A stretch of 51,016 nt of DNA from an uncultured Planctomycetales bacterium (GTDB lineage Bacteria > Planctomycetota > Planctomycetia > Isosphaerales > Isosphaeraceae), in NCBI GenBank assembly GCA_903926465.1, contig CAIYJE010000048.1:1-51016 (forward strand). Direction: 5' to 3'. Within the stretch, counting starts at the first letter, position 1, and each line of letters begins with the position of its first letter. The notes beneath the pieces are model-generated. The model made no database searches. It was given only the letters and a program-made list of their open reading frames with translations, and was not told where the DNA came from. Of the stretch, positions 38,125 to 39,795 are shown piece by piece. A program made the position numbers and the translations under genes.

Positions 38125-39795
38125 TTAGCTATCGAACATTGGCAGTTCAAGCTTTTCTTCGCTGGCGATCCGGCGGAGTTTCGTCTGGGCGCGGCTCTCG
38201 ATCTGGCGGACGCGTTCCTTGGTGATTCCCAGCTCTCGACCAAGTTGTTCGAGCGTTTGTTCGTTCACCCCACCCAGTCCGAACCGGCTGATGATGATCT
38301 TCCGCTCCCGTTCGTCGAGCCGGCCGAGCATCCCTTTGACGGTCTCTTGCATCTTCTTCAGGGTGTTTTCGTACTCGTGCTCATCGGCCCGGGTATCGGC
38401 GGCGGCCTCGAACATCTCATCGTGGCCGGTGACAAACCGGTCGCGGCGGAAATTCTCTTCGGGAATCGAACGGGCGTAGTTCTTCATGATCGCCCAGCTC
38501 GCATAAGTCGAAAACTTATTCCCTCGGCTGAAGTCAAATTTTTCGACAGCGCGGATCAGGCTCATGTTGCCGTCGGAGACCAGTTCGAAGAAGTTGTTGG
38601 TGGGGTTGACGTGCCGTTTGGCAATCGAAACCACCAGCCGCAGGTTGCAGCGGATGATCTGGTTTTTGACGGCCAAGGCTTCTTCCTGGAGCCGTTCAAT
38701 CTCGTCGAGTTCAGCGCTCCGGGCTCGGGTGGGGTCCAGCGCTTCGCGGATCTTGCCGGCCTGGTACTTGAGGTAGTTCATCTTGCGGAACAGGTGCATT
38801 TCCTGCTCACGGGTCAAGAGGGGCACTTCGTACAGGCTGGCCAGGTAAGGTGGTAACCCCTTGGGAATGCGGGCTTTGCGAGCTCCCTTGGCGGCTGCGA
38901 CCTCGGGCATGGGGCCCAGGATCTCTGCGCGGCACTGAGGGTCATCAAAGGTGGCATTGGCCACACATTCGAGCTTGGTTTCAAGCAGTCGCTCGGCCCG
39001 GATCTCGTTGATGATCCGGTAGATGCTGGAGCGAGTCCGTCCGAACTGGGCTGCCAGGGTTTCAACCGGCACACCCAGCCTGGACAGGCGATGGATCTTG
39101 GCCTTGGCGTCATCATTCAGGGGGCCACTGGTGGTGGCGAAGATCGCTCGGTCCGGATTTTCTCGATCGTAAGCCTTGAGCGTGGTCCGGATGGTCTCGG
39201 GAGAACGTTCCATTTTCCGTGCTATCCTCCGCGCAATTTCAGCCAGTTTTCCCTGGCCACCAAACTGCGCCATGCGACGGGCCCGGCGGATGATTTCTTC
39301 CCGCTCGGATTCCGTCAGGTGTCGAAACCGGCTGCCGCGTTCAACCTGATCGCGGTGTTCAGCCACGAAACGAACCACACTCGATTCCAGAAAACCCAGT
39401 TTCGGACGCCCCTCTAGCAGGAACCGGCGGGCAATGAGCCCCTGGCGCCTCCAGCGAGAGACCGTTCGCGTTGAAACGTTCAGCTTCTTGCTGACTTCCT
39501 CGACCGTCAGAACCGGCTCTTCCACCTGTTCCGCTGGTATTAGCACCAGGCGAGCAAAATCTTCAAGCAGCAGTCTCAGGTCATGCCGCACGTCGTCGCC
39601 GGTTAGAACCAGGTCGCTGTCGCGATCGGGTCGGTATCCGGTAATGCGGAAGCAGAGATAGTCATAGGGGTACCGTTTGACCGGGTCGATCTCGGTCAGC
39701 AGTGTTTCCGTGCGGTCCAATTGCTGCTGGCGGCGCTCCCTGGGGGCAAAGCGAGCCAACTGCTTGAGGGCCGGACTTCGATAAGCTGTCACCAT
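38125..39795 (-). CDS. Sigma70-family factor with three N-terminal helix-turn-helix segments
   Basis: A 556-aa protein. The C-terminal 240 residues are a group 2/3-like sigma: 'PLLTREQEMHLFRKMNYLKY' (region 1.2, about 325-345), region 2 with 'NLRLVVSIAKRHVNPTNNFF' and 'FSTYASWAIMKNYARSI' (about 384-445), and region 4 with 'DERERKIIISRFGLGG' and 'LGITKERVRQIESRAQTKLR' (about 490-540). Region 3 is short. Ahead of it, about 310 residues hold a MerR/excisionase-like HTH at 96-119 ('TVEEVSKKLNVSTRTVSRWR'), a second HTH-like segment at 184-211 and a third at 241-270 ('VETLAAQFGRTRSSIYRIIN'). This suggests a sigma factor that also binds DNA on its own. The start at 39795 has GGGGAG seven bases upstream. 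I believe relatives occur in other planctomycetes; the function is unknown to me. Confidence 0.88.
   Translation of the reverse strand: MVTAYRSPALKQLARFAPRERRQQQLDRTETLLTEIDPVKRYPYDYLCFRITGYRPDRDSDLVLTGDDVRHDLRLLLEDFARLVLIPAEQVEEPVLTVEEVSKKLNVSTRTVSRWRRQGLIARRFLLEGRPKLGFLESSVVRFVAEHRDQVERGSRFRHLTESEREEIIRRARRMAQFGGQGKLAEIARRIARKMERSPETIRTTLKAYDRENPDRAIFATTSGPLNDDAKAKIHRLSRLGVPVETLAAQFGRTRSSIYRIINEIRAERLLETKLECVANATFDDPQCRAEILGPMPEVAAAKGARKARIPKGLPPYLASLYEVPLLTREQEMHLFRKMNYLKYQAGKIREALDPTRARSAELDEIERLQEEALAVKNQIIRCNLRLVVSIAKRHVNPTNNFFELVSDGNMSLIRAVEKFDFSRGNKFSTYASWAIMKNYARSIPEENFRRDRFVTGHDEMFEAAADTRADEHEYENTLKKMQETVKGMLGRLDERERKIIISRFGLGGVNEQTLEQLGRELGITKERVRQIESRAQTKLRRIASEEKLELPMFDS

What the first reader, a model, noticed from the sequence alone, without database searches (positions are those of the whole stretch)
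38125..39795. Sigma factor fused to three helix-turn-helix segments
About 310 residues with a MerR/excisionase-like HTH and two further HTH-like segments precede a complete sigma70 region 1.2-2-4 core with a short region 3. Such a protein could recognise extra DNA sites or a remote element by itself, combining activator and sigma factor. The role of this architecture is unknown to me.
Basis: partly seen in the sequence, partly recalled or inferred. Interest (0 to 1): 0.62.

Follow-up and report, generated by a model that had tools for sequence, protein, structure and literature searches.

The report
Planctomycete sigma factor with DNA-binding array
Nearly every bacterium of one large planctomycete class carries, often next to its core protein-synthesis genes, one copy of an unstudied gene-switching protein (a sigma factor) that has lost one standard part and gained three extra DNA-gripping segments, so it may choose its target genes in an unusual way.

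Summary
The minus-strand gene 38125-39795 encodes 556 residues: a ~90-residue domain of unknown fold, a MerR/BldC/excisionase-type winged HTH (94-149), two homeodomain-like HTHs (158-214, 225-275), then sigma70 regions 1.2, 2 and 4. AlphaFold2 with 57 sequences folds the whole N-terminal part (pLDDT 86). Correction: region 3 is not short but missing; a 3.2-like stretch joins regions 2 and 4 (spacing identical in all 57). The -10 reader is altered (RpoD WWIRQAITR, here WAIMKNYAR). The array occurs in 286 of 297 genomes of the class, almost always once. In many lineages the gene lies upstream of tRNAs-tuf-secE-nusG-rplK/A/J. Its upstream region carries two overlapping, conserved ECF-like promoter elements. 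HTH and sigma halves separate in evolution: one genus lost HTH1-2; relatives in other classes keep the HTHs while the sigma core decays. Best reading: an alternative sigma factor with a built-in DNA-binding array, itself under ECF-type control. Function, targets and DNA binding are untested. ECF and group 1-3 definitions each fail one feature; overlap with uncharacterised planctomycete ECFs with N-terminal extensions (former ECF87-89) could not be tested.

The parts
38125..39795 (-). Whole gene: sigma70-family protein of 556 aa with N-terminal HTH array (P0001)
   Evidence: purine-rich Shine-Dalgarno-like sequence before the ATG at 39795
39526..39795 (-). N-terminal domain, residues 1-90, mostly helical, fold not identified; holds the conserved YxYxxLCxxITxYRP motif
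   Evidence: AlphaFold2; conservation; no Pfam hit in this part in the query
39349..39516 (-). HTH1, residues 94-149: MerR/BldC/excisionase-type winged HTH
   Evidence: Pfam HTH_17; helices 98-105, 109-118 and hairpin 123-136; VIA matches BldC-DNA 6ama Z 6.5 rmsd 2.6 over 54, phage Xis 4j2n Z 6.6 rmsd 2.3 over 52, terminase small subunit 7lwr Z 7.4 rmsd 2.6 over 53
39154..39324 (-). HTH2, residues 158-214: three-helix homeodomain-like HTH
   Evidence: helices 162-177, 184-195, 199-212; VIA 2rn7 TnpE Z 7.5 rmsd 2.4 over 56
38971..39123 (-). HTH3, residues 225-275: three-helix homeodomain-like HTH
   Evidence: helices 228-239, 244-251, 255-272; HTH_29/28; VIA 8hno Z 6.5 rmsd 1.7 over 48, sigma region 4 3n97 Z 6.2 rmsd 1.5 over 46
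38863..38970 (-). Variable linker, residues 276-311
   Evidence: least conserved stretch of those compared, mean 0.47
38743..38862 (-). Sigma region 1.2, residues 312-351, first helix included
   Evidence: alignment with own RpoD and other sigmas; conservation
38458..38718 (-). Sigma region 2, residues 360-446, with altered -10 reader WAIMKNYAR
   Evidence: Pfam Sigma70_r2; alignment; W434 A435 I436 M437 K438 N439 A441 R442 invariant in 57 sequences
38383..38457 (-). Region 3.2-like connector, residues 447-471; sigma3 domain missing
   Evidence: 39 residues between positions 446 and 486 in all 57 sequences; no Sigma70_r3 hit
38158..38382 (-). Sigma region 4, residues 472-546, recognition helix TKERVRQIE close to that of group 1 sigmas
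   Evidence: Pfam Sigma70_r4 E 8e-17; alignment
40034..40061 (-). Predicted ECF-type promoter: CGAACC, 16 bases, CGTCTA; start codon about 240 bases downstream
   Evidence: conserved in relatives; site scores 15.2 bits with the window left out of the matrix
33962..36046 (-). Syntenic neighbours in the same direction: tRNA-Thr, Tyr, Gly, Thr and tuf (tRNA-Trp, secE, nusG and rplK/A/J follow at lower coordinates)
   Evidence: downstream tuf in 17 of the 62 other loci examined, many of which are too short to show it; tRNAs

Best explanation
The gene encodes an alternative sigma70-family factor of planctomycetes. Step 1 (inferred from sequence): regions 1.2, 2 and 4 dock it on RNA polymerase. Step 2 (inferred): region 4 reads a sigma70-like -35 element, while a changed region 2.4 reads a -10 element that differs from TATAAT. 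Step 3 (inferred): because sigma3 is missing, the contact upstream of the -10 element is lost, and three N-terminal HTHs on a flexible linker bind a fixed sequence near the promoter, so that the site for the array and the -10/-35 elements together define a narrow set of promoters: recruiter and sigma factor in one chain. Step 4 (conserved sequence shown, function inferred): the gene is transcribed from a conserved region with two overlapping ECF-like promoter elements, which puts it downstream of one or more ECF sigma factors, or of itself. Its place next to tRNA-tuf-secE-nusG-rpl genes in many lineages and its near-universal single copy suggest a core, growth-related role rather than a niche one.
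For: Folded N-terminal array with three HTHs; each HTH basic (pI 10.4-11.2); recognition helices more conserved than the rest of the N-terminal part (0.71 against 0.61, permutation p 0.004). Sigma core: region 2 has 41 of 71 positions invariant (95% or more) among 36 non-redundant relatives; regions 1.2, 2 and 4 align with the genome's own RpoD. Near-universal: 286 of 297 genomes, 155 of 157 genera of the class; 26 of 26 high-quality genomes of the family. Synteny with tRNA-tuf-secE-nusG-rpl. Promoter region: motif GAACTTTT-N13/14-GTCTAAT found de novo; 72% of 60 held-out upstream regions score over 12 bits against 3% of 134 upstream regions of other genes. The second element, TGATCC/CGATCC-N16-CGTATTAA, with a matrix from sites outside the family, finds 87% of the family's upstream regions at over 10 bits against 3% of shuffled ones.
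Against: No experiment shows DNA binding, polymerase binding or any target. One genus (7 of 7 genomes) lost the N-terminal domain, HTH1 and HTH2 and keeps HTH3 plus sigma, in two loci checked still beside tuf, so the full array is not always needed. The RNAP-facing motif of region 2.2 differs from RpoD (ELVSDGN against DLIQEGN), so core binding may be altered. The strict promoter pattern is rare elsewhere, so no regulon was found.
Confidence: 0.6

Rival explanations
1. The HTH array is the working part and the sigma core only tethers the protein to RNA polymerase or competes for it: a DNA-bound regulator that uses sigma regions as a docking handle and does not itself melt promoters.
For: In relatives from other classes the HTH part is kept while the sigma part decays: L177, L184 and L185 end before region 4, and L178 and L179 have no Sigma70_r2 match although both pass Sigma70_r4. 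The -10 reader lacks the second melting tryptophan of RpoD.
Against: Within the class, region 2 is the most conserved part of all, which fits an active -10 reader better than a mere handle; one genus keeps sigma and loses most of the array.
Confidence: 0.2
2. The N-terminal part is a regulatory or autoinhibitory extension, or a protein-interaction module, and the HTH folds do not read promoter DNA (a one-component sigma factor).
For: N-terminal extensions of planctomycete ECF sigma factors are known and thought to be regulatory, with no mechanism known (PMC8103513). The first 90 residues have no identified fold and are not basic (pI 6.6).
Against: Three separate HTH folds of classes that bind DNA in solved structures (BldC, Xis), strongly basic, with recognition helices the better conserved part.
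Confidence: 0.15
3. The conserved element TGATCC/CGATCC-N16-CGTATTAA is read by this protein itself (autoregulation), not by an ECF factor. (This concerns control of the gene and can hold together with the best explanation.)
For: The upstream half often reads TTGATC, near a group 1 -35 element; the strict pattern is largely private to this gene (3 of 10 hits in 119 genomes lie at it; at least nine of 61 in the family); the protein has a changed -10 reader.
Against: CGTA and CGTC -10 elements are typical of ECF promoters (general knowledge), and the overlapping GAAC element carries the AAC motif that two-thirds of ECF promoters have (PMC4598750) and does not fit a group 1 region 4.
Confidence: 0.25
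4. It is already filed in the ECF classification among the planctomycete ECFs with N-terminal extensions (former groups ECF87-89) and is an uncharacterised member of that set. (A question of classification, compatible with the mechanism above.)
For: It lacks sigma3, has a linker under 50 residues between regions 2 and 4, passes the NCBIfam sigma70-ECF superfamily cut-off (94.2 against 42.9 bits), and comes from planctomycetes; those groups are described as having N-terminal extensions.
Against: It has region 1.2 with its first helix, which ECF factors lack (PMC4598750). The sequences of ECF87-89 were not on hand.
Confidence: 0.35

Closest known systems
Group 1/2 sigma70 factors (RpoD/SigA)
   Same: Regions 1.2, 2.1-2.4 and 4, with a near-identical -35 recognition helix
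   Different: No region 1.1, no sigma3, changed -10 reader, and about 312 extra N-terminal residues with three HTHs; the same genome has a separate canonical RpoD
Group 4 (ECF) sigma factors, including planctomycete ECFs with N-terminal extensions (former ECF87-89)
   Same: No sigma3 and a short linker between regions 2 and 4; N-terminal extension in planctomycetes
   Different: Keeps region 1.2 with its first helix and a group 1-like region 4; the extension here is a three-HTH array, whereas the nature of the ECF87-89 extensions could not be checked
BldC / MerR-type and excisionase winged HTH proteins
   Same: Fold of HTH1 (BldC-DNA complex 6ama Z 6.5, rmsd 2.6, 32% identity over 54 residues)
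   Different: Those are stand-alone regulators; here the fold is one segment of a sigma factor
Tandem homeodomain-like DNA-binding domains (Tc3 transposase, Pax, Myb-type)
   Same: HTH2-HTH3 tandem arrangement
   Different: Weak matches (Z about 6, large rmsd for the pair); three-helix HTHs are common, so no kinship is claimed
MzaA, sigma factor of the MZA anti-phage system
   Same: Best NCBIfam match, to the sigma parts (145 bits)
   Different: Far below the family cut-off of 800 bits; best stretch lies in sigma region 2; no defence context seen here

Membership tests
Sigma70 superfamily | Sigma2 and sigma4 domains | tested here: met
   Pfam Sigma70_r2 48.5 bits (cut-off 24) and Sigma70_r4 60.9 bits (cut-off 24.1); TIGR02937 94.2 bits (cut-off 42.9)
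Sigma70 superfamily | Binds core RNA polymerase and starts transcription | not testable with these tools
   No wet-lab test; conservation of regions 1.2, 2 and 4 only
Group 1-3 sigma factors | Sigma3 domain present (usual, not strict, for group 3) | tested here: not met
   No Sigma70_r3 hit at this gene while RpoD and three other own sigmas pass the cut-off and a fourth is found below it; gap in alignment; 39 residues between positions 446 and 486 in all 57 sequences
RpoD/SigA (group 1) | Curated RpoD models over cut-off | tested here: not met
   NF004208 141 bits against 555, TIGR02393 136 against 354; a separate canonical RpoD is in the genome
ECF (group 4) sigma factors | No sigma3; linker of under 50 residues between sigma2 and sigma4 | tested here: met
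   definition from PMC8103513
ECF (group 4) sigma factors | First helix of region 1.2 absent | tested here: not met
   Residues 312-330 align with RpoD region 1.2 and are helical in the model (316-323); definition from PMC4598750
Planctomycete ECFs with N-terminal extension (former ECF87-89) | Sequence match to the group models | not tested
   Reference sequences not on hand; Wiegand et al. 2020 not held
MerR/BldC/excisionase-type winged HTH (HTH1) | HTH followed by a beta-hairpin wing, with matching profile | tested here: met
   HTH_17 34.2 bits against 27; helices and hairpin; VIA matches
MzaA (MZA defence) | NCBIfam NF041931 over cut-off | tested here: not met
   145 bits against 800

The most novel reading that the evidence does not exclude
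A class of sigma factors, conserved at least across Planctomycetia, in which the role of the sigma3 domain is taken over by an N-terminal array of three DNA-binding modules, so that one polypeptide does the work of both activator and sigma factor at a small fixed set of growth-related promoters, in a cascade below ECF sigma factors.
Probability: 0.35. Interest if true: 0.8.

Novelty: new variant of a known kind. Interest (0 to 1): 0.6.

Why it matters
Bacteria usually separate promoter choice by the sigma factor from site choice by activators. A conserved natural fusion of the two, without sigma3, would be a clean test of how extra DNA contacts can replace a sigma domain. It would also give planctomycetes, whose gene control is poorly known and rich in sigma factors, a candidate core regulator: mostly single-copy, often next to the translation and ribosomal-protein cluster, with an upstream region conserved across the class that can be tested directly in a genetically tractable laboratory species (Planctopirus limnophila).

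Tried and rejected
Mobile or phage origin: no N-terminal match in plasmids or viral contigs; the ten best phage hits lie on sigma parts; rejected, as the gene is near-universal and often syntenic. MZA defence sigma MzaA: far under cut-off. A standard TTGACA/TATAAT promoter in 37900-40400: none found. Regulon search with strict promoter patterns: few hits outside the gene itself, no recurrent target identified. Palindrome GTTCGCATGCGAAC over the upstream element: present in a subset, but permutation leaves only a weak excess (95 against 84.5), so not claimed as an operator. HTH2-HTH3 as a copy of sigma3-sigma4: superposition is possible (Z about 6, rmsd about 20), but Myb, Pax and transposase folds score the same and Pfam prefers HTH_23/28/29, so not claimed. 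Essentiality in Planctopirus limnophila (PMC10632474): the text names the housekeeping sigma as essential, and its gene tables were not readable here. Upstream alignment by MAFFT alone was too gappy to read outside one block; motif search without alignment worked.

Full report
The finding. The ORF is there, with ATG at 39795, a Shine-Dalgarno-like stretch before it, 556 residues and a stop at 38127-38125. Pfam finds sigma regions 2 and 4 well above cut-off and HTH families at 95-147, about 189-206 and 232-270. Solved-structure matches by sequence have their best stretches in the sigma part.

Structure. AlphaFold2 on an alignment of 57 sequences (relatives at 44-71% identity) gave a mean pLDDT of 82 for the whole protein and 86 for residues 1-292 alone. 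The pTM is low (0.46 and 0.56), so the relative placing of the domains is not known. The N-terminal part holds a mostly helical domain (1-90), a winged HTH (helices 98-105 and 109-118, hairpin 123-136) and two three-helix HTHs (162-212 and 228-272). A second look at PDB structures puts HTH1 with BldC, phage Xis and phage terminase small subunits, HTH2 with the transposon protein TnpE, and HTH3 with an archaeal transcription factor and sigma region 4. The Z-scores (6 to 7.5) are in the range where common folds also score, so they support the fold, not kinship.

Correction on region 3. The genome's own RpoD (G000:C31) has the full set of regions. Aligned with it, this protein has region 1.2 with its first helix, region 2 and region 4, but the sigma3 domain is missing and only a 3.2-like acidic stretch remains. 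The Pfam sigma3 model finds RpoD and three other own sigma genes above its cut-off and a fourth below it, but not this one. The distance between positions 446 and 486 is exactly 39 residues in all 57 sequences. The -10 reader WWIRQAITR of RpoD is WAIMKNYAR here, nearly all of it invariant in 57 sequences. The -35 recognition helix TKERVRQIE is close to RpoD's TRERVRQIE.

Distribution. With the N-terminal 286 residues as query, 286 of 297 genomes and 155 of 157 genera of the class match, almost always once; in the family 26 of 26 high-quality genomes match. Across the phylum 91 of 392 sampled genomes match, including families outside the class at lower identity. The 80 loci kept from a scan of 84,980 species carry planctomycete titles, apart from two titled only 'bacterium'; other phyla were not sampled with a profile, so restriction to the phylum is likely but not proven. 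Viral and plasmid collections hold no N-terminal match.

Neighbourhood. In the window the gene is followed in the same direction by a DUF72-like gene (by eye), tRNA-Thr, Tyr, Gly, Thr, tuf, tRNA-Trp, secE, nusG, rplK, rplA and rplJ. The sigma-tRNA-tuf-secE-nusG order, with the same tRNAs in those scanned, recurs in 17 of 62 other loci, many of which are too short to show it. Other lineages, for example Rubripirellula and Schlesneria relatives, have no tuf within about 6 kb. A conserved divergent neighbour of unknown function (window 40159-41715) is found in 22 loci.

The modules come apart. One genus (g324, 7 of 7 genomes) has only HTH3 plus sigma (open frames of 354-426 aa), and in two loci examined the gene is still followed by tuf. 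On a tree of the sigma core these short forms nest inside the long ones, next to Fuerstiella-type sequences, so the N-terminal domain, HTH1 and HTH2 were lost. Several Isosphaeraceae have extra short paralogues that group with the long forms of that family. In the opposite direction, relatives in other classes keep the HTH part while the sigma core decays or loses region 4 (for example L177, L178, L179, L184, L185). The HTH array therefore appears to be under selection of its own.

Conservation. Among 36 non-redundant relatives, region 2 is the best conserved part (41 of 71 positions at 95% or more). In the N-terminal part the three predicted recognition helices are more conserved than average (0.71 against 0.61; permutation p 0.004). 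All three HTHs are basic (pI 10.4-11.2) and the first 90 residues are not. This is what is expected if the array reads a fixed DNA sequence, but it is not proof, as recognition helices are also part of the fold.

Promoter region. Upstream regions of the gene were searched without a prior model. Outside the Isosphaeraceae, expectation-maximisation found GAACTTTT-N13/14-GTCTAAT. With matrices built on one half and tested on the other, 72% of upstream regions score over 12 bits against 3% of 134 upstream regions of other genes in the same loci. With GAAC masked, a second overlapping element appears, TGATCC/CGATCC-N16-CGTATTAA, with an inferred share of about 80% of 86 regions; a matrix from sites outside the Isosphaeraceae finds 87% of their regions at over 10 bits against 3% of shuffled ones, while the reverse test is weaker (36% against 4%). 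Locus L063 shows both: GCGAACTTTTGTCCTGATCCGACCGTCTAATGGCAACGTATTAG. The window has CGAACC-N16-CGTCTA at 40061-40034 on the minus strand, about 240 bases before the ATG. Both elements look like ECF promoters. Caveats: sites for the half-and-half tests were located with a matrix fitted on all regions, so the held-out figures are somewhat optimistic, and start sites are not mapped. Strict forms of the second element are rare elsewhere, so no regulon is proposed.

What it most likely is. Taken together: an alternative sigma factor with a built-in DNA-binding array, without sigma3, near-universal in the class, probably under ECF-type transcriptional control, and possibly tied to growth-related genes. 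Shown: sequence, predicted fold, distribution, synteny, conserved promoter-like elements, evolutionary separability. Inferred: polymerase binding, DNA binding, altered -10 specificity, cascade, targets.

Known kinds. By published definitions (PMC4598750) group 1 and 2 factors are closely alike and carry sigma3, group 3 usually has it, and ECF factors lack both sigma3 and the first helix of region 1.2. This family lacks sigma3 but keeps region 1.2, so it fits no group in full. Planctomycete ECFs with N-terminal extensions (former ECF87-89) are known and unstudied (PMC8103513); whether this family was filed there could not be checked. In the open-access papers searched, no description of this family was found, which is a limited search.

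Noticed in passing
window 40034-40061 (-) and upstream regions of L043-L104, L123-L151: Two overlapping ECF-like promoter elements conserved across the class upstream of the gene; in a subset the first overlaps a palindrome GTTCGCATGCGAAC.
   Followed up: partly
L187-L198: Isosphaeraceae carry extra short paralogues (last HTH plus sigma core, in some the HTH is also gone) that group with the family's long forms; targets unknown.
   Followed up: partly
L164-L169: A second clade of short sigma proteins (open frames 307-370 aa) seen in genus g324, related to the core of this family.
   Followed up: no
L177, L178, L179, L184, L185: Relatives in other planctomycete classes keep the HTH array while the sigma core is decayed or lacks region 4, as if the protein had become a DNA-binding regulator.
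   Followed up: partly
[quoted passage not shown]
   Followed up: no
window 36930-37895 (-): Gene that looks by eye like the DUF72 kind, directly downstream of the sigma gene in the window.
   Followed up: no
not in the window: literature lead, PMC2754498 Table 2: Rhodopirellula baltica RB12251, a 567-residue 'RNA polymerase specialized sigma factor', is repressed under heat, cold and salt together with ribosomal genes; it may be the orthologue.
   Followed up: partly
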